A model generated the notes under the pieces. The model had not been told where the DNA came from and searched no databases. It was given only the letters and a program-made list of their open reading frames with translations. A DNA stretch of 64,000 nt from Salipaludibacillus agaradhaerens (lineage in GTDB: Bacteria > Bacillota > Bacilli > Bacillales > Salisediminibacteriaceae): NCBI RefSeq assembly GCF_002019735.1, contig NZ_KV917378.1:3560869-3624868 (forward strand), read 5' to 3'. The position numbers were made by a program, and so were the translations under genes. This document shows, in pieces, positions 56,023-64,000 of this stretch (position 1 is its first letter; each line of letters starts with the position of its first letter).

Positions 56023-56087
56023 AATTAAATGTAAAAACAGAGATTGAATGTCACAAAAATTTAAAACTTTTATTATACAAATAGTGG

Positions 56088-56115
56088 TTGTAAATGATGG
56101 AATATGTAGTAAAAT
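56088..56115 (+). promoter_or_regulatory. rap promoter
   Basis: TTGTAA (56088-56093), 16 bp, TAAAAT (56110-56115). It lies inside the extended reading frame that begins at 56048, which argues for a downstream start. Confidence 0.55.
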
Positions 56116-56173
56116 GACATTAAATAGAAAAAAGAGTGGGGAAGTGTATATTCAAGGAGAGGATGAAGGAATT

Positions 56174-57274
56174 TTGATAGAAAAAATAGCATCCGAAAAC
56201 GTAGCTGAAATGCTCAATGAATGGTATAGCATGATTGTACAGCATAATGTTAAAAAAGCTGTAGAAATTAAAAATGAAATTGAACAGACGTTGCCGTTTA
56301 TGGAAGAAAATCAAAATTTGGTGATATACTTCACCCTCTTAGACTTCCGACACAAAATGATGATAAGGAACATCCACGATTTGAAGGATGATTTAAATTA
56401 TTTTGAAGAACAAAATATTAATCAAACAGATACAATAATAGAATATTATTATTATTTTTTTGCGGGACAATACAATTTTTACAATAGAAACTTTATGCAA
56501 GCAATTAAAAATTACGAATTAGCTGAAAATAAGCTAAAACTTGTGTCAGACCCAATCGAAGAGGCAGAATTTCATTATCATCTGGGACAAGCATACTATC
56601 GAATTGAGCAACATTTTTTATCATTAAATCATGCAAAAAAAGCATTAAAAATTTTCGGAGAATTTGAAAATTACTTGGAGAAAGAATTAAATAGTGAAAT
56701 GCTTTTAGCTGCTAACTTAGTAGATCTATGCCATTATGATAAAGCTTACTCATACTATTATACGGCTTTAAAGAAAGCGGAGGAAGGGAACTTTAAACTT
56801 TCTATTGCATTAGCAAATTTTAATTTAGGTTTATGCTATCAACGGCAAATGACGTATGACCTTTCAATTACACATTTTGAAGAAGCTTTAAAAATTTCGG
56901 AATATAGCGAATCAAGTAGAGGAGTAAGAGGTATATATGAATTAGCTTATACGTTATATAAGGCTAAAAGAAATGAAGAAGGCCATCAATTACTTTTATC
57001 TGGAATGGAAAGGGCTAAAAGAGAAGAACAGAAAGAGGCTTTAACAAAATTTAAGGTGATTCATGCGTGTTATGAGTTACAGTCGATTCCAATAATTATT
57101 TCTTTATTGGATGAACTTGGGAAGTTTCAATTATGGACAGATGTAGTGGAATTATCTTACGAAATTGGAGTTGTTTTTGAAGAAAGGGGGAATTACGAAG
57201 GGGCGATGAAATTTTATAAAAAGGCTGTGCAAGCTAAAACGGAAGTACACAAAATGAGTGAGGTGATAATATGA
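56174..57274 (+). CDS. Rap-family response-regulator phosphatase / RRNPP regulator
   Basis: Rap proteins are TPR proteins that dephosphorylate response regulators such as Spo0F or block ComA-type regulators, and are inhibited by Phr peptides. The N-terminal helices match Rap (IASENVAEMLNEWY, FMEENQNLVIYFTLLDFRH), followed by about six TPRs (~residues 95-350). The TTG at 56174 gives 366 aa, the usual size, and begins as Rap proteins do; the frame is open to an ATG at 56048, but a promoter lies between. The last bases overlap a small exported-peptide gene. Confidence 0.85.
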   Translation: MIEKIASENVAEMLNEWYSMIVQHNVKKAVEIKNEIEQTLPFMEENQNLVIYFTLLDFRHKMMIRNIHDLKDDLNYFEEQNINQTDTIIEYYYYFFAGQYNFYNRNFMQAIKNYELAENKLKLVSDPIEEAEFHYHLGQAYYRIEQHFLSLNHAKKALKIFGEFENYLEKELNSEMLLAANLVDLCHYDKAYSYYYTALKKAEEGNFKLSIALANFNLGLCYQRQMTYDLSITHFEEALKISEYSESSRGVRGIYELAYTLYKAKRNEEGHQLLLSGMERAKREEQKEALTKFKVIHACYELQSIPIIISLLDELGKFQLWTDVVELSYEIGVVFEERGNYEGAMKFYKKAVQAKTEVHKMSEVII

Positions 57275-57831: not shown

Positions 57832-57869
57832 TTTCATGTGGTAGTTTAGTAACTCATAGGGGGTTGGCG

Positions 57870-57888
57870 CACCTTCCGAAAGGAGGTG
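57870..57888 (+). promoter_or_regulatory. Hairpin hiding the toxin ribosome binding site
   Basis: CACCTTCC-GAAA-GGAGGTG: the Shine-Dalgarno GGAGGTG (57882-57888) pairs with the upstream arm across a GNRA-type GAAA loop. This should lower toxin translation. Confidence 0.6.
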
Positions 57889-57896
57889 ATGCCTAT

Positions 57897-57983
57897 ATGG
57901 TGAGTGTGACAGAAGCGTTAACATTAATGATCTCGTTTGGGATGTTAATCGTGGCGTTGTTGACATTCGATCATAAAAAATAA
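57897..57983 (+). CDS. Holin-like (TxpA/Hol_Tox-type) type I toxin
   Basis: This 28-codon gene begins MVSVTEALTLMISFGMLIVA and ends TFDHKK: one membrane helix followed by a short charged end. It matches the 'putative holin-like toxin' family of Firmicutes, related to TxpA and BsrG-type membrane toxins of type I systems. A perfect AAAGGAGGTGAT lies 7 bp upstream but is folded into a hairpin. An antisense promoter and terminator on the opposite strand cover the 3' half of the transcript. Confidence 0.8.
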   Translation: MVSVTEALTLMISFGMLIVALLTFDHKK

Positions 57984-58124
57984 GCCCCCACATGTATGAG
58001 TTAACGGCTCTGTGGGAAGGCTTATTTGTCTAACCCTTTGCCAATCCCCTTTGAAGGGAACTGAGCTATTACGGACCGTTAGTGTTAGCCGCACTAGCGG
58101 TCTTTTTTATCATACGATTTTCTT
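57973..58124 (-). ncRNA. Candidate antisense antitoxin RNA
   Basis: On the minus strand TTGATT (58155-58160), 18 bp, TATAAT (58131-58136) give a start near 58124. The RNA would run leftwards through the toxin mRNA 3' end and stop at a minus-strand terminator: AAGCC...CCCAC paired with GTGGG...GGCTT, then ATTTTTTAT (57973-57981). It would be ~150 nt, overlapping the toxin stop codon and 3' UTR, as RatA overlaps txpA. Confidence 0.65.
58073..58110 (+). terminator. Terminator of the toxin mRNA
   Basis: GACCGTTAGTG pairs with CACTAGCGGTC across TTAGCCG, then TTTTTTAT. Confidence 0.88.
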
Positions 58125-58208: not shown

Positions 58209-59207
58209 TTAGGGTGTCGTCTCAGCTTGTTTCGCTCTAATGTCTGCTAATAATGTGAGGGCCTCTTCTTTAGTATCAGTATCGTTCTCATTGGAATCAC
58301 CTTGACTTTTTTCAATAGCTTTCTCAGCATCAATCAAAGCTTGATCCGGGTATCCCATGGCTAAAAATGTGCGTGCGCGAAGCAGAAAAATATGAGCGTC
58401 TCCTATATAGGTTTGTTGTGTTTCACTTATATCTTTTAGTGCTTCGCGATAATGACCTAAATGATAGTGACAGATAGCTCGCTGATATAAAATAGCTGCT
58501 TTGTTCTCGTCTTCAGTAAGGGACACAGCCTTATTGATATAGGTTAGGGCAGTAGTATAAGCGTGTTGTTCGATGTGAAGTATACCTAAGTAGATATAAC
58601 CAGAAGCATGTTCTGGTGACGTTTCAATTGCTTTAAGATAATCGGCTTGTGCTTTTTCCACTTCTCCAATAGTGTGATAGACATTCCCACGACTAATATA
58701 ATTTTCCGTGACGGGATGTTTATCTAGTAATTTTGTTAGATAGTTAATCTTTTTTTCATCTGTCATACGATAAAACTTATTATGTCGGGTATTTAGCTTT
58801 TTAGCTAGCAGAGGGTCCTGATACACAGCACGAACTAATGTGATATATAAATAATAGAGTATAACACCTTTGATTGCTGATACTATATAGCGAAAAAATG
58901 GGCTATAAGAATCAAAAAAGGGCGAGACTGTATCCAGAATGATAATGAGTTGTGGGAATGTCAGGAAAAGCCATGTTAGCCGTTTATCAATGATCCATCC
59001 GATAAGGAATACAAGCGCCATGAGATAGTAAATCACTAAATAATTAACCAAATTAAAAATGGATAGAACATGTAATGCTGAGATGGTAGTGAAAATTAAA
59101 AATCCCTTTTTAAATGTATGAACATAAAAATAGGTAAAGTAAGCTGTTAAAAAAATAAAGAAACATTTGTAAAAATAAACGATTGTATCGAGGTTTATTA
59201 GCATCAC
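58209..59207 (-). CDS. Membrane-anchored TPR protein
   Basis: This 332-aa protein has five or so membrane segments in the first ~125 residues, then a cytoplasmic TPR domain (~155-325; e.g. ENYISRGNVYHTIGEVEKA and GYIYLGILHIEQHAYTTAL). No enzyme motif is seen. It is the last gene of the leftward operon behind the Rhs gene, 39 bp after the preceding TPR gene. It could be part of the immunity or processing machinery for the toxin; the function is unknown. Confidence 0.75.
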   Translation of the reverse strand: MMLINLDTIVYFYKCFFIFLTAYFTYFYVHTFKKGFLIFTTISALHVLSIFNLVNYLVIYYLMALVFLIGWIIDKRLTWLFLTFPQLIIILDTVSPFFDSYSPFFRYIVSAIKGVILYYLYITLVRAVYQDPLLAKKLNTRHNKFYRMTDEKKINYLTKLLDKHPVTENYISRGNVYHTIGEVEKAQADYLKAIETSPEHASGYIYLGILHIEQHAYTTALTYINKAVSLTEDENKAAILYQRAICHYHLGHYREALKDISETQQTYIGDAHIFLLRARTFLAMGYPDQALIDAEKAIEKSQGDSNENDTDTKEEALTLLADIRAKQAETTP

Positions 59208-59246
59208 AATCAGTCACTTTCTAAATTAAATGAATAAGCCGTTTAC

Positions 59247-60488
59247 TTATATGGTGTAGGTTTCCATCAGTGATTTAAACTGGTCATGCTCAAAATAAGG
59301 TTTAAAATAGGGCGTTTCTAAGCATGTCTTTGTGGAATGGCCTAACTGCAGAGCTTTCTCTAAGTACTTAAATAGTAAGTCAGTTTCTTGTAACTCTGCA
59401 TTAATTTCTGCCAGGGTAGAATAAGGTGTTTCTAGATCTGGATCAAGTGATAAGGCGTATTTGGCTTCTTTAATGGCTTCTTCATAGTTTTTTAAGGACA
59501 ACAAAATACATCCTCGTAAGTTGTAGAACTCTGGCTCAGTAGGGTCTAATGATATAGCTTTGTTAATATCTTTCATGGCGATATCACATTGGTTTAAATC
59601 GTGATATAAAGAAGCTCTATGGAAATAGCCCCAAGCATGGTTTGGCTCACGGTTTAATAAGAAATTTAGATCCTGTAAAGCCTCATTATAATTCTCCACC
59701 TTTACATACGCGAAGGATCTATTTAGATAGGTCGATGAGTTACCACCATGATCAATGGCCATCGTATATGCATCTATAGCTTTAGTATAATCATGTAATT
59801 CATCATATATGTTTCCTATATTGTGATAAGCTTTCCAATCAGAGCCTAATATATCAAGATATAAATAATAGTATTTAAGGGACTTATCATAGTCAGTTAA
59901 TGAATTGTGTATGCGTCCAAGTAAAAAATAGGCGTCAACGTATGCAGGATCTTGTTCAATAATTTTTTCACAACACGTGATTCCTTTATTTGTATTTCCT
60001 AGCTGGAAATAAATTGAGGCCATATTATAATAGGCGTCTAAATAAGTCTCGTCAATTTCAATTGCGTTATTATAGTCAGCTAAGGCGCTTGTATAATCTT
60101 CTAAACTCTCATATAAGGTCCCTCTATTAAAGAAAGGGAGTGGATTATGAGGGGATAGATGAATGATCGTTGTATAATCTTCTATAGCTTGTTTAGTATA
60201 ATTAAGATTGGAAAAAGCCAGAGCTCTATAGAAATAGAGCTCTTCATTATCTGAAAATAATGAAATAGCCTTAGTAAAATCATCTATGGTCGCTTCATTA
60301 TCTTCCAAATCTAAATAAATTAATCCACGCTCAAAATAGCCTTCATAATGTGATGGATAATTGTCAATTAAATGTGATAACATGTTTATTTTTTCCTGTT
60401 TATTAGGTTCGTTTCTGGCCTCTTCTATGAAGACGTTTAATTGATTTACTCGATTTTTCTTAAATAATTTTTGATATAATTTTTTCAT
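59247..60488 (-). CDS. TPR protein, tandem duplicate A
   Basis: This 413-aa protein consists of about ten tetratricopeptide repeats (residues ~20-395) with no signal peptide, membrane segment or enzyme domain. It is ~95.6% identical (18 differences) to the next gene upstream in the operon. The ATG at 60488 follows AAAAGGACC and matches the start of the duplicate; a longer start at 60509 has no support. Its position behind an Rhs toxin suggests an immunity or chaperone role, which is inference. Confidence 0.85.
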   Translation of the reverse strand: MKKLYQKLFKKNRVNQLNVFIEEARNEPNKQEKINMLSHLIDNYPSHYEGYFERGLIYLDLEDNEATIDDFTKAISLFSDNEELYFYRALAFSNLNYTKQAIEDYTTIIHLSPHNPLPFFNRGTLYESLEDYTSALADYNNAIEIDETYLDAYYNMASIYFQLGNTNKGITCCEKIIEQDPAYVDAYFLLGRIHNSLTDYDKSLKYYYLYLDILGSDWKAYHNIGNIYDELHDYTKAIDAYTMAIDHGGNSSTYLNRSFAYVKVENYNEALQDLNFLLNREPNHAWGYFHRASLYHDLNQCDIAMKDINKAISLDPTEPEFYNLRGCILLSLKNYEEAIKEAKYALSLDPDLETPYSTLAEINAELQETDLLFKYLEKALQLGHSTKTCLETPYFKPYFEHDQFKSLMETYTI

Positions 60489-60526
60489 ATGACTAGGGTC
60501 CTTTTCCAAATTAATGAGTTGTTTAC

Positions 60527-61768
60527 TTATATGGTGTAGGTTTCCATCAGTGATTTGAACTGGTCATGTTCAAAATAAGGTTTAAAATAGGACGTTTCTA
60601 AGCATTTCTGAGGAGAATAACCTAACTGCAGAGCTTTTTCTAAGTACTTAAATAGTAAATCAGTTTCTTGTAACTCTGCATTAATTTCTGCTAGGGTAGA
60701 ATAAGTTATTTCTAGATCTGGATCAAGTGATAAGGCGTATTTGGCTTCTTTAATGGCTTCTTCATAGTTTTTTAAGGACAACAAAATACATCCTCGTAAG
60801 TTGTAGAACTCTGGCTCAGTAGGGTCTAATGATATAGCTTTGTTAATATCTTGCATGGCGATATCACATTGGTTTAAATCGTGATATAAAGAAGCTCTAT
60901 GGTAGTAGGCCCAAGCATGGTTTGGCTCACGATTTAATAGGAAATTTAGATCCTGTAAAGCCTCATTATAATTCTCCACCTTTACATAAGTGAAGGATCT
61001 ATTTAGGTAGGTTGATGAATTACCGCCCTGATCAATGGCCATCGTATATGCTTCTATAGCTTTAGTATAATCATGTAATTCATCATATATGTTTCCTATA
61101 TTGTGATAAGCTTTCCAATCAGAGCCTAATATATCAAGATATAAATAATAGTATTTAAGGGACTTATCATAGTCAGTTAATGAATTGTGTATGCGTCCAA
61201 GTAAAAAATAGGCGTCAACGTATGCAGGATCTTGTTCAATAATTTTTTCACAACACGTGATTCCTTTATTTGTATTTCCTAGCTGGAAATAAATTGAGGC
61301 CATATTATAATAGGCGTCTAAATAAGTCTCGTCAATTTCAATTGCGTTATTATAGTCAGCTAAGGCGCTTGTATAATCTTCTAAACTCTCATATAAGGTC
61401 CCTCTATTAAAGAAAGGGAGTGGATTATGAGGGGATAGATGAATGAAAGTCGTAAAATCTTCTATAGCTTGTTTAGTATAATTAAGATTGGAAAAAGCCA
61501 GAGCTCTATAGAAATAGAGCTCTTCATTATCTGAAGATAATGAAATAGCCTTAGTAAAATCATCTATGGCCGCTTCATTATCTTCCAAATCTAAATAAAT
61601 TAATCCACGCTCAAAATAGCCTTCATAATGTGATGGATAATTGTCAATTAAATGTGATAACATGTTTATTTTTTCCTGTTTATTAGGTTCGTTTCTGGCC
61701 TCTTCTATGAAGACGTTAAATTGATTTACTCGATTTTTCTTAAATAATTTTTGATATAATTTTTTCAT
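60527..61768 (-). CDS. TPR protein, tandem duplicate B
   Basis: This is the 413-aa sister of the preceding entry, with the same TPR layout and same start (MKKLYQKLFKKNRVNQ) after AGAAAGGATG. It begins only 20 bp after the Rhs stop codon, the usual place of an immunity gene. A 394-bp stretch (61053-61446) is identical in the two copies, while the rest differs by several percent. Substitutions cluster towards the C-terminus (e.g. SPQKCLET against STKTCLET). Confidence 0.87.
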   Translation of the reverse strand: MKKLYQKLFKKNRVNQFNVFIEEARNEPNKQEKINMLSHLIDNYPSHYEGYFERGLIYLDLEDNEAAIDDFTKAISLSSDNEELYFYRALAFSNLNYTKQAIEDFTTFIHLSPHNPLPFFNRGTLYESLEDYTSALADYNNAIEIDETYLDAYYNMASIYFQLGNTNKGITCCEKIIEQDPAYVDAYFLLGRIHNSLTDYDKSLKYYYLYLDILGSDWKAYHNIGNIYDELHDYTKAIEAYTMAIDQGGNSSTYLNRSFTYVKVENYNEALQDLNFLLNREPNHAWAYYHRASLYHDLNQCDIAMQDINKAISLDPTEPEFYNLRGCILLSLKNYEEAIKEAKYALSLDPDLEITYSTLAEINAELQETDLLFKYLEKALQLGYSPQKCLETSYFKPYFEHDQFKSLMETYTI

Positions 61769-61788
61769 ATGATAGCATCCTTTCTAAA

Positions 61789-64000
61789 TTAGTTTTGTCC
61801 TTTCCAGTTTTCCTTATAGTACTGCTCTGCGAATTGTAAATTTTCTTTAGCTTTATTTTGCCTGTTCATAAGCTCGACATAACCATCTCCAAAAGCAACT
61901 CCGCTAACTGTAAAAATACCGACTAATCCCCCCCATTTTGGTCCTCCCGGTATTTTAGAGTGGGCGGAAAGACCAGTGAAAGGATCAACTGGAGGATTTG
62001 TAGCTTGTTGTTGAATATAACGTTCATGTGCCCCACTATGGTTAATTCCTTTTTTAGGAACATTTGGAGGTACGCCTGGTATTTTTTTGCGTTCTTTTCC
62101 ATTGACCAAAGTATTTTTTAACCTTTTATTGTGAGTGGCTACCTCCCCTTTGGTTGGTGCATTTTTTCCTATATATGCTTCCACGCTTGCTAAATCATCT
62201 GCAGACAATCCACCTACGTTATTATTCGAATCAGCAATTATTCTTTCTTTTAACTCAGGGGTTGTCAGTTCTTCCCATTCAGTTAATTGGGGATTTCCTG
62301 TTAAGGCTCGTGGGACATATACATTATCCCAATTCCCTGCGAAGCCTGAGGCTACTGTTCCTCCAAATCCTATAACTCCCGCGGCACCCGCAAGTCCTGC
62401 ACCAGCAGCTATTCCAGCCCCAGTCCCAGCTGTAGTACCACCTAAACTGTGCCAAATACCAGGGTTAAGTGCAGGGGCAGCAATGACTGTGTTCATGGAA
62501 GTATTGTTGGAGCTTATGTCAAGGTCCTGAGTAGGGTCATAACAAGTAATGGACTCATCTCTGTTTTCTGTACAGTAACCCCTTGTTGAATTTTCTGGTT
62601 TTTGACCAGAAGTATCAGTGTAAGTCATTGGTTGATTCACTACATAAGGATAAGGATTTGTAGTATTTGGATGTAACATGTGACCTTCCCAAGAATCCTC
62701 AGAAATAAACCTTCCAGTATTGGGCATGTAATAGCGGGCTTGAGCATAATAAAGCCCCGTTTCTTTATCATAAGGAAGTCCTGTATAAGAATAATGGTGA
62801 GCTCCATCTAAAATAGTATCACTATCTTTCAATATAGGAGATCCAAAGGTATCATATTTCATATGTTTAGATTCTTCTGTTTTTAGACGTACACTTGATA
62901 CAATGCTTCCTTGTTCGTTATGTTTAAAGGAGTAAGTATCTAATGATTCTTGTGTGTTGGTATTAGAAGCATTACCATTTTTTAATGTTGATGTTAAAAT
63001 ATCTTCTTTAATTAGATTGATTCCATATGTGTAACGGTGAACCTTGTTATCGCCAGTTGTTTTTGTTAGTACATGATTAGCGGGGGATAAGATATCTTGA
63101 ATAAAACGTTCTTCTAAAAGAATATCTGGATTGGTTACCTCTTTATTACGTAAAAGCTGATGTGTCTCCTTTGTTGGTGAGTTTGAGATTGTCTTTTGAA
63201 TTCGCTGTCCTAACCCATTATATGTGAATTTTGATTCCACATCCATGTTAGTCCATGCCTCTACGAGTTGATTAGTAGCATCAAATGTATGTTTCTGAGT
63301 TAAATGATCCCCTTGAAAGATTTCTAATAAGTTTCCTCGATTATCATACGAGTAGTAATTCTTATCTAGTGTCATAATATCCATGCGTTGTTTCATGCGA
63401 TTTAATCTATCGTAGTTAAACACATAGCCGGATTGAGTGGTTTGATTATTTTGAGTAAGCTCAGCTAATCTATTTCCAGTCATATCATAGAAAAAACGAG
63501 TATGTTGACCAGATACTCCTTTAACCTCAGTAATTTGGTTTAAAGCATCGTAGCTATATTCAATCTTGTCTGACGGCTTTTCATCTCTCGAAAATATTAT
63601 AGCCTTTTTTCTATTCCCAACTGGATCGTATTCATAAATGTGTTTTTCGGTCACCATATCTTGGGAGTTTAAATAGGACAATTCTGTGACTCGAGATAAT
63701 GGGTCATATTTAAAAGTTGTTAGACTTCCATCATGTAGGCTAACGGATGCAAGGTCGCCATTTTCATCATAACTATAATTTGTGGCACATTTTAATGAGT
63801 CTGTTACTTTTACTAACTGCCCGAGGGAATTATACTCATTGCCAACTTCATAGCCATCAGGATACGTTGTAAATGCTCGTTGTCCTTGAGCTGTCCACTT
63901 ATAATGAATACTTTCATTGTTGGGTGTTTTGACAGTAATCAGTTGCCCTAGAGAATTATATTCAAAATGTGTAGTCCCTGACCAATCTTCAATCTCTGAA
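61789..64000 (-). CDS. Rhs/WapA-type polymorphic toxin (N-terminal part beyond window)
   Basis: The frame is open to the right edge, so the start lies outside. The visible part begins with YD/RHS repeats (e.g. YNSLGQLVKVTDS, YDALNQITEV, YDMTGNRLAELT, YDNRGNLLEI) that form the beta-cage. It then shows the conserved Rhs end YYMPNTGRFISEDSWEGH and NPYPYVVNQPMTYTDTSG. The last ~270 residues are variable: a Gly/Ala-rich hydrophobic stretch and a tail with NHSGAHERYIQQ and KIPGGPKWGGLVG. I do not recognise the toxin family. WapA/Rhs proteins mediate contact-dependent competition and are neutralised by a downstream immunity protein. Confidence 0.88.
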   Translation of the reverse strand, partial: SEIEDWSGTTHFEYNSLGQLITVKTPNNESIHYKWTAQGQRAFTTYPDGYEVGNEYNSLGQLVKVTDSLKCATNYSYDENGDLASVSLHDGSLTTFKYDPLSRVTELSYLNSQDMVTEKHIYEYDPVGNRKKAIIFSRDEKPSDKIEYSYDALNQITEVKGVSGQHTRFFYDMTGNRLAELTQNNQTTQSGYVFNYDRLNRMKQRMDIMTLDKNYYSYDNRGNLLEIFQGDHLTQKHTFDATNQLVEAWTNMDVESKFTYNGLGQRIQKTISNSPTKETHQLLRNKEVTNPDILLEERFIQDILSPANHVLTKTTGDNKVHRYTYGINLIKEDILTSTLKNGNASNTNTQESLDTYSFKHNEQGSIVSSVRLKTEESKHMKYDTFGSPILKDSDTILDGAHHYSYTGLPYDKETGLYYAQARYYMPNTGRFISEDSWEGHMLHPNTTNPYPYVVNQPMTYTDTSGQKPENSTRGYCTENRDESITCYDPTQDLDISSNNTSMNTVIAAPALNPGIWHSLGGTTAGTGAGIAAGAGLAGAAGVIGFGGTVASGFAGNWDNVYVPRALTGNPQLTEWEELTTPELKERIIADSNNNVGGLSADDLASVEAYIGKNAPTKGEVATHNKRLKNTLVNGKERKKIPGVPPNVPKKGINHSGAHERYIQQQATNPPVDPFTGLSAHSKIPGGPKWGGLVGIFTVSGVAFGDGYVELMNRQNKAKENLQFAEQYYKENWKGQN

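What the first reader, a model, noticed from the sequence alone, without database searches (positions are those of the whole stretch)
58209..64000. Rhs toxin operon with two near-identical TPR genes in the immunity position
A leftward four-gene operon runs Rhs toxin, TPR-B (20 bp gap), TPR-A (38 bp) and membrane-TPR (39 bp). Immunity genes normally follow Rhs/WapA toxins directly and are often duplicated. TPR-only proteins of 413 aa are not among the immunity families I know for WapA. They could be immunity proteins, or chaperones/adaptors for toxin folding or export, with the membrane-TPR protein as anchor. This is the best candidate for an undescribed system in the window.
Basis: partly seen in the sequence, partly recalled or inferred. 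Interest (0 to 1): 0.75.

Follow-up and report, generated by a model that had tools for sequence, protein, structure and literature searches.

The report
Type VII Rhs toxin with TPR guardians
A bacterium carries a giant predicted antibacterial toxin, built for the type VII secretion route, followed by three helical-repeat proteins (two soluble, one in the membrane) that most likely protect the producer; two close relatives lack the toxin but keep a version of the membrane one, as bacteria do with spare immunity genes.

Summary
The four-gene operon is real, with the stated gaps, but begins outside the window. The complete toxin is 1962 aa with an N-terminal LXG domain and a DUF5344 partner gene 17 bp upstream: a predicted type VIIb effector, not a Sec/WapA toxin. 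Its 261-aa tail is an orphan with a glycine-rich hydrophobic stretch. TPR-A and TPR-B are 97% identical in DNA. The third protein has five predicted membrane helices, then TPRs. In two same-genus genomes the same site holds only a 35-37% identical relative of the membrane-TPR protein, without toxin or soluble pair. This resembles EsxX, where soluble ExiAB stays with the toxin and membrane ExiCD also occurs as orphans. In 74 other LXG loci, hydrophobic toxin tails go with membrane-protein genes (23/24 versus 4/50), which favours a membrane-acting tail, though the window's stretch lies unusually far from the C-terminus and its membrane gene is third, not first. None of 78 surveyed loci had a convincing TPR gene. 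Best reading: two-compartment immunity built from TPR proteins. Toxicity, export and the role of each TPR protein are inferred, not shown. New variant of a known kind.

The parts
61789..64000 (-). C-terminal 736 residues of the LXG-Rhs toxin (1962 aa in full; the gene continues about 3.7 kb beyond the window, L008:4158-10046). The LXG domain and the DUF5344 partner gene (L008:10064-10336) lie outside the window.
   Evidence: Pfam LXG 2-201, DUF6531 370-442, 23 RHS_repeat stretches; Rhs_assc_core 1608-1692; LxG motif LKG at residue 44.
61789..62574 (-). Orphan C-terminal tail (261 aa), presumed toxin domain
   Evidence: No Pfam, NCBIfam or PDB match of note; no relative in 149 and in 396 other genomes, overlapping sets, in plasmids, phages or viral contigs (33).
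62338..62439 (-). Gly/Ala-rich hydrophobic stretch with GxxxGxxxGxxxG (glycine-zipper pattern), toxin residues from 1747
   Evidence: best 19-residue Kyte-Doolittle mean 1.56; the four-glycine pattern also arises in 4.9% of shuffled tails, so the pattern alone is weak.
60527..61768 (-). TPR-B, soluble TPR protein, 413 aa
   Evidence: TPR_1 E 5e-48; TPR_END_plus NF047558 90.4 bits against cut-off 32; 10 repeat matches to the session's own TPR model; maximum 19-residue hydrophobicity 0.35.
59247..60509 (-). TPR-A, tandem duplicate of TPR-B (413 aa from the ATG at 60488)
   Evidence: 97.1% nt identity; dN/dS about 0.24-0.35 and one 395-nt stretch free of differences, P = 6e-5 under uniform placement, suggesting gene conversion.
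58209..59207 (-). Membrane-TPR protein: five predicted membrane helices (about residues 6-130), then TPRs predicted to face the cytoplasm
   Evidence: AlphaFold2 model, mean pLDDT 77.9, lower (42-76) over the membrane helices; K/R counts of the loops; relatives at the syntenic site in G004 and G006.
58073..58103 (.). Terminator-like stem-loop, 105 bp past the operon's last stop; listed on the + strand and overlapping the neighbouring BsrG-like RNA, so its service to the operon is a guess

Best explanation
The locus encodes a polymorphic antibacterial toxin of the type VIIb secretion system with its own immunity set. The DUF5344 partner and the LXG domain target the toxin to the export machine. 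The Rhs region carries an orphan C-terminal tail that probably acts on the target cell's membrane. The membrane-TPR protein protects the cell envelope against incoming toxin from kin or rivals, so strains without the toxin can keep a version of it. The near-identical soluble TPR pair stays with the toxin gene and binds the toxin in the producer's cytoplasm before export, as antitoxin. Shown by sequence: LXG, DUF5344, Rhs, TPR and membrane architecture; gene order; restricted distribution; the toxin-free membrane-TPR relative at the syntenic site. Inferred: export, toxicity, membrane as target, and the role of each TPR protein.
For: LXG E 1.2e-65 and DUF5344 E 6.5e-17. DUF5344 proteins (LapA3, LapX3) go with LXG toxins (PMC12744356, passage; PMC9600955, passage). 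The genome encodes YukC/EssB. G004 and G006 carry only a membrane-TPR relative at the same site (37% over 313 and 35% over 310 columns, membrane region included). Both lack a TPR-B match at E<=1e-40 and the tail at E<=1e-3. DNA next to the cassette is 94-97% identical between G000 and G004. The two orphans have dN 0.064 and dS 0.284, so they are under constraint. Model: EsxX, with soluble ExiAB downstream of all esxX genes analysed and membrane ExiCD also as orphans (PMC12744356, passages). In other LXG loci, hydrophobic tails go with a polytopic gene among the first three downstream genes: 23 of 24 versus 4 of 50, Fisher 4.7e-14; one locus per tail cluster 5 of 5 versus 0 of 33. One surveyed locus (L185) carries a DUF5085 pair like ExiAB (one of the two above Pfam's cut-off, the other at E 0.0005), a positive control.
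Against: The window's hydrophobic stretch ends 191 residues before the C-terminus; only one surveyed locus (L135, with a polytopic gene) has its strongest stretch at 150-250 residues, and of 13 with it further away 11 lack a polytopic gene. The glycine pattern occurs in 4.9% of shuffled tails. In the survey the polytopic gene is usually the first downstream gene (23 of 24 hydrophobic loci); here it is third. The TPR domain of the membrane protein is predicted cytoplasmic, an odd side for meeting an incoming toxin. The concave positions of TPR-A/B are not unusually hydrophobic: 0.37, fourteenth of 20 ranked rows. The membrane-TPR relatives are only 35-37% identical to the window's and may answer a different toxin. 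No tail relative exists to test linkage. Nothing shows toxicity or export.
Confidence: 0.5

Rival explanations
1. The soluble TPR pair are export or folding chaperones for the giant toxin (keeping the Rhs region unfolded for a narrow channel), and only the membrane-TPR protein gives immunity.
For: Listeria LrhA is argued to be too large for folded export through the type VIIb channel (PMC10327511, passage). A chaperone serving the hydrophobic T3SS translocators, SycD, is a TPR protein (PMC3443056, start of abstract in the search listing; its TPR nature recalled and borne out by the term count). The soluble pair was not found where the toxin was not found.
Against: None of 78 surveyed LXG loci has a convincing TPR gene, but none of those toxins is Rhs-sized either. 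The match to the LcrH/SycD model is far under its cut-off, 59.1 against 104.8 bits. Tight duplication is more typical of immunity genes (recalled).
Confidence: 0.25
2. The tail is an enzyme acting in the cytoplasm, the hydrophobic stretch is only a translocation or pre-toxin segment, the soluble TPR proteins are ordinary cytoplasmic immunity proteins, and the membrane-TPR gene is an unrelated or older immunity gene at a hot spot.
For: About 190 residues follow the hydrophobic stretch, room for an enzyme. Of 13 surveyed loci whose strongest stretch lies more than 250 residues from the end, 11 have no polytopic gene (the other two, L180 and L188, also have a stretch nearer the end), so such stretches can go with soluble immunity. 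Salmonella Rhs effectors with a GH-E nuclease domain have a TPR protein as putative immunity (PMC11669294, passages). The membrane-TPR alleles differ strongly between closely similar flanks.
Against: No enzyme family matches the tail at a useful score. The membrane-TPR gene is the operon's last gene, 39 bp from TPR-A on the same strand; the bases before its start codon resemble those before the orphans, so it was not placed there at random.
Confidence: 0.2
3. The TPR genes are unrelated cargo that happens to follow the toxin gene.
For: TPR proteins are common, and distant relatives lie away from any toxin gene in the five neighbourhoods read.
Against: Same strand, 20-39 bp spacing, purifying selection between the two copies, and no TPR-B match at E<=1e-40 in the 7 other genus genomes, none of which has the toxin tail.
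Confidence: 0.05

Closest known systems
EsxX with ExiAB and ExiCD (Staphylococcus aureus ST398; PMC12744356, summary and passages seen)
   Same: LXG toxin with a DUF5344 partner; soluble pair that stays with the toxin plus polytopic membrane proteins that also occur without it; glycine-zipper pattern in the toxin.
   Different: Here the toxin carries an Rhs region and an unrelated tail; the soluble pair are TPR proteins, not DUF5085; one five-helix TPR membrane protein stands in for ExiC and ExiD; no second partner gene was listed directly upstream (ORFs of 60 aa or more); the zipper is far from the C-terminus.
LrhA/LrhI Rhs toxin of Listeria monocytogenes essC8 (PMC10327511, abstract and passages seen)
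   Same: Rhs toxin with DUF6531 assigned to the type VIIb system, with small partner proteins and a membrane-anchored putative immunity protein.
   Different: LrhA lies at the ess locus with LxpABC partners and is not described as carrying an LXG domain in the passages seen; its candidate immunity gene encodes 261 aa with one membrane helix and no assigned family.
TelE/TipE of Streptococcus gallolyticus (PMC10434224, abstract and passages seen)
   Same: LXG toxin with a glycine zipper, a soluble immunity protein, and a six-helix membrane protein gene next to the toxin.
   Different: TipE is DUF5085; no Rhs region is described; the zipper lies at the C-terminus.
Salmonella PAAR-RhsA effectors with a TPR putative immunity protein (PMC11669294, passages seen)
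   Same: TPR protein in the immunity position of an Rhs toxin.
   Different: Type VI secretion, nuclease tail in the GH-E case, one TPR gene, prediction only in the passages seen.
WapA/WapI of Bacillus subtilis (PMC8321402, passage seen)
   Same: Rhs repeats, variable C-terminal toxin, immunity gene directly downstream.
   Different: WapA has a signal sequence; this protein has an LXG domain instead.

Membership tests
LXG effector of the type VIIb secretion system | N-terminal LXG domain with LxG motif | tested here: met
   PF04740 residues 2-201, 221.6 bits against cut-off 26.5; LKG at residue 44.
LXG effector of the type VIIb secretion system | Small helical partner gene upstream | tested here: met
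   DUF5344 E 6.5e-17, 17 bp upstream. Only one partner found; its C-terminal arm reads MxxxD where FxxxD is described for LapX3.
LXG effector of the type VIIb secretion system | Secretion machine in the same genome | tested here: met
   YukC/EssB E 1.3e-123 at C1:3343386. EssC and the other parts were not searched for.
LXG effector of the type VIIb secretion system | Demonstrated secretion | not testable with these tools
   Needs a yukC or essC deletion and a secretion assay.
EsxX/ExiABCD compartment-specific immunity | Soluble pair of the DUF5085 family | tested here: not met
   The pair are TPR proteins. Not filed as a member; only the arrangement is alike.
EsxX/ExiABCD compartment-specific immunity | Membrane component also present without the toxin | tested here: met
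   Syntenic site in G004 and G006, a divergent allele at 35-37% identity. Of 8 genus genomes examined, 3 (the window's included) carry the family.
EsxX/ExiABCD compartment-specific immunity | Soluble pair neutralises in the cytoplasm, membrane component outside | not testable with these tools
   Needs expression tests.
Glycine-zipper membrane toxin | GxxxGxxxG repeats in a hydrophobic stretch near the C-terminus | tested here: inconclusive
   Pattern present, but 191 residues from the C-terminus and expected in 4.9% of shuffled tails.
WapA-type Rhs toxin | N-terminal signal sequence | tested here: not met
   The N-terminus is an LXG domain; no 19-residue window above 1.4 before residue 249. 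No signal-peptide program was run.
LcrH/SycD class TPR secretion chaperone | Score above the family's curated cut-off | tested here: not met
   59.1 and 58.1 bits against 104.8.

The most novel reading that the evidence does not exclude
A two-compartment immunity system made of TPR proteins throughout: a duplicated soluble TPR superhelix holds the membrane-active tail of a type VII Rhs toxin in the producer, and a five-helix membrane protein with a cytoplasmic TPR domain, versions of which are kept alone by toxin-free relatives, guards the envelope. This would be a second, unrelated protein solution to the problem that ExiAB and ExiCD solve, and, as far as the paper searches show, the first TPR immunity set tied to an LXG toxin.
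Probability: 0.4. Interest if true: 0.65.

Novelty: new variant of a known kind. Interest (0 to 1): 0.5.

Why it matters
Compartment-specific immunity is described for the type VII toxin EsxX, with DUF5085 and DUF5079/DUF5080 proteins (PMC12744356). If this locus works the same way with unrelated TPR proteins, the division into cytoplasmic and envelope immunity is a general answer to membrane-acting type VII toxins. The association between hydrophobic toxin tails and downstream membrane-protein genes (23 of 24 versus 4 of 50) gives a simple rule for guessing the target of orphan LXG tails. The locus also offers an LXG-Rhs toxin with all its candidate immunity genes in one short operon, and close relatives with only a membrane-TPR gene at the same site: a ready natural comparison.

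Tried and rejected
WapA reading: rejected because of the LXG domain. Known toxin family for the tail: no usable match in Pfam, NCBIfam or PDB sequences, and none by phmmer at E<=10 among the LXG proteins and downstream genes of the surveyed and own-genome loci. Fold of the tail: mean pLDDT 41, not searched further. Relatives of TPR-B: 5 other genomes of 396 at E<=1e-15 (4 candidates scored per genome), best 36% identity; the five neighbourhoods, read by eye from ORF lengths and ends, show no LXG or Rhs gene. Plasmids: 18 records at E<=1e-20, all under 32% identity, of distant groups. Plasmid matches to the toxin's first 451 residues: 13 records, all limited to the LXG part (41-55% of the query). 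Relatives of TPR-B, the tail or the membrane region by peptide patterns in genome contigs or viral contigs: none confirmed; these scans reach mainly close relatives, and near records may be left out. Hydrophobic groove in TPR-A/B: not supported. Fold search with the membrane-TPR model: generic TPR structures among the 50 shown, plus one designed membrane protein. A weak TPR-like protein five genes after one surveyed LXG gene (L199 d5; E 0.0074 with my model; 1.4e-5 by phmmer to TPR-B) was not counted as convincing.

Limits of the survey: the 80 loci are my own selection from the rows, not all rows (own genome and many broken or contig-end loci left out). Two (L167, L168) gave no LXG ORF at the expected place and four (L132, L134, L146, L192) had no downstream gene, so n is 78 for the TPR count and 74 for the association. 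TPRs were sought with a model of my own, not with Pfam. Membrane helices were called by hydrophobicity alone. The 230-residue zone was chosen after seeing the window's tail; other settings are. With a 150-residue zone the window's tail would not count as hydrophobic.
Full report
Observation. TPR-A and TPR-B are a recent tandem duplication: 1206 of 1242 nt identical, 18 amino-acid differences, dN/dS about 0.24 (NG86) to 0.35 (YN00), and a 395-nt stretch without differences, which uniform placement reaches with frequency 6e-5 in 100,000 trials. The pair is therefore constrained and probably exchanges sequence.

What lies beyond the window. The window is part of a single 4.32-Mb contig. Reading on shows a toxin of 1962 aa with LXG (E 1.2e-65), DUF6531, 23 Rhs repeat stretches and the Rhs-associated core at 1608-1692. 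A 90-aa DUF5344 gene (E 6.5e-17) lies 17 bp upstream. DUF5344 proteins are the LapA3/LapX3 partners of LXG toxins (PMC12744356, passage; see also PMC9600955, passage). The genome encodes YukC/EssB about 280 kb away and has further LXG genes (9 match rows in all, some fragments). This is a predicted type VIIb effector. The organism was not identified.

How unusual it is. Of 72 LXG match rows in 120 genomes the window's is the only one in a frame of Rhs length, 1965 aa; the next longest frame is 743 aa. Among 279 genomes of the order, 42 of which match the toxin's first 451 residues, the next longest frame is 852 aa. LXG and RHS repeats are listed together for type VII toxins in tables of PMC3482391 (passages), so the combination is rare here but not new. 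The tail has no relative at E<=1e-3 in 149 and in 396 other genomes (overlapping sets), nor in plasmids, phages or viral contigs (33). TPR-B has no match at E<=1e-40 in 99 other genomes, 7 of them same-genus.

The syntenic site. A gene to the right of the operon is found in 3 of 8 genus genomes. In the other two, G006 (L115) and G004 (L116), the site between the small NTF2-like gene (name recalled, not scanned) and the Rap-like gene (RapH_N) holds one long gene where the window's genome has five. It encodes a 367- or 363-aa protein that aligns with the window's membrane-TPR protein over 310 and 313 columns, membrane region included, at 35% and 37% identity. The two orphans are 87% identical to each other, with dN 0.064 and dS 0.284. 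TPR-B finds only that gene's TPRs there, at 22-29% identity among the significant rows. Between G000 and G004 the DNA next to the cassette is 94-97% identical, and the flanking proteins are 99% (Rap), 97% (NTF2-like), 94% and 88% identical; between G000 and G006 they are 59%, 82%, 94% and 73%. A 63-nt stretch upstream of the DUF5344 gene has a 78% match upstream of the orphan in L115, and a 41-nt one in L116, and the bases just before the start codon are alike. So between similar flanks the cassette differs: toxin, soluble TPRs and one membrane-TPR allele in one species, another membrane-TPR allele alone in the others. Loss of the toxin or gain of a cassette are both possible. The orphans end in a motif like the C-terminus of TPR-B (QLG-S--K then KPY), which hints at common ancestry of the soluble and membrane proteins. 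The family's membrane region was found convincingly in 3 of 259 genomes, all of this genus; four further rows had E 0.0016-0.0034 and partial spans.

Membrane protein. The AlphaFold2 model (three sequences, mean pLDDT 77.9, lower over the membrane part) has five helices between residues 6 and 130, then TPR helices. Positive residues lie after helices 1, 3 and 5, so the TPR domain should face the cytoplasm. Its nearest solved structures are TPR proteins in general.

Survey of other LXG loci. I fetched 80 loci, of which 78 could be parsed and 74 had a downstream gene. A hydrophobic stretch in the last 230 residues of the toxin goes with a polytopic gene among the first three downstream genes in 23 of 24 loci, against 4 of 50 without such a stretch (Fisher 4.7e-14). 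The loci are not independent; one per tail cluster gives 5 of 5 and 0 of 33 (P 2e-6; 40 clusters, two of whose representatives have no downstream gene). The result holds at other zone widths and cut-offs, and weakens to 23 of 35 against 4 of 39 if the whole protein after residue 215 counts. A DUF5085 pair like ExiAB follows one of these toxins (L185; one member above Pfam's cut-off, the other at E 0.0005), which shows that the survey sees the known arrangement. Of 14 toxins with the four-glycine pattern 11 have a polytopic gene. No convincing TPR gene was found after any of the 78 toxins; one weak case is L199 d5. In the window's own genome two LXG toxins are followed by pairs of hydrophobic proteins (L033, L036; judged by eye), none with a Pfam match.

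Mechanism. The window's tail has a hydrophobic maximum of 1.56 and a glycine-zipper pattern, and the operon ends with a polytopic gene, so by the survey rule it belongs to the membrane-acting class. Two points weaken this: its stretch ends 191 residues from the C-terminus, where only one comparison locus (L135) lies, and the polytopic gene is third, not first. EsxX gives the model for the division of labour: ExiAB binds the zipper in the cytoplasm and lies downstream of all esxX genes analysed, while membrane ExiCD blocks extracellular toxin and also occurs as orphans (PMC12744356, passages). That paper also notes that Tse5, a type VI Rhs toxin, needs no cytoplasmic immunity because the Rhs shell encloses the toxin. 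A type VII Rhs toxin is probably exported unfolded (argued for LrhA in PMC10327511, passage), so it could need a cytoplasmic binder after all; that is my inference. Whether the soluble TPR pair is that antitoxin or a chaperone is open. Their concave positions are not especially hydrophobic.

Literature. TPR proteins as putative immunity to Rhs toxins are in print for Salmonella T6SS effectors (PMC11669294, passages), and an islet with an Rhs gene (SPC1575) and a TPR gene (SPC1576) is tabulated in PMC7400221 (passages). PMC3482391 lists ankyrin, HEAT and LRR immunity, and TPR as a fusion partner of Imm67 and Imm68, in the passages shown. Papers holding LXG, TPR and immunity as whole words numbered 4; passages of all four were seen and none describes TPR immunity for an LXG toxin. 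Two wider searches were seen as listings of 30 of 55 and 25 of 56 papers. Most subscription papers and all bioRxiv preprints as such are outside the library, so this is not proof of absence.

Noticed in passing
window 57834-58099 (+): BsrG-type type I toxin RNA (Rfam RF01412, 72.1 bits against gathering 55), convergent with the end of the operon, with a short hydrophobic peptide (39 aa from the first start codon). The peptide occurs twice in G006 (L115) and once in G004 (L116).
   Followed up: partly
L033:4399-8093: Another LXG toxin of the same genome (474 aa) with two small helical-looking genes upstream and two hydrophobic proteins of 240 and 253 aa downstream, without Pfam match.
   Followed up: partly
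L035:5616-7090: A broken LXG gene in the same genome: the LXG match is split over two adjoining ORFs.
   Followed up: no
L124, L129, L173, L180, L190: Soluble proteins of 234-269 aa follow the membrane-protein genes of several glycine-zipper LXG loci. The three scanned (from L124, L180, L129) have no Pfam match above its cut-off; they may be further soluble partners of the ExiAB kind.
   Followed up: partly
window 56048-57274 (+): Rap-type phosphatase gene (RapH_N E 6.6e-24) beside the toxin locus, 99% identical in protein to G004 but 59% to G006.
   Followed up: no
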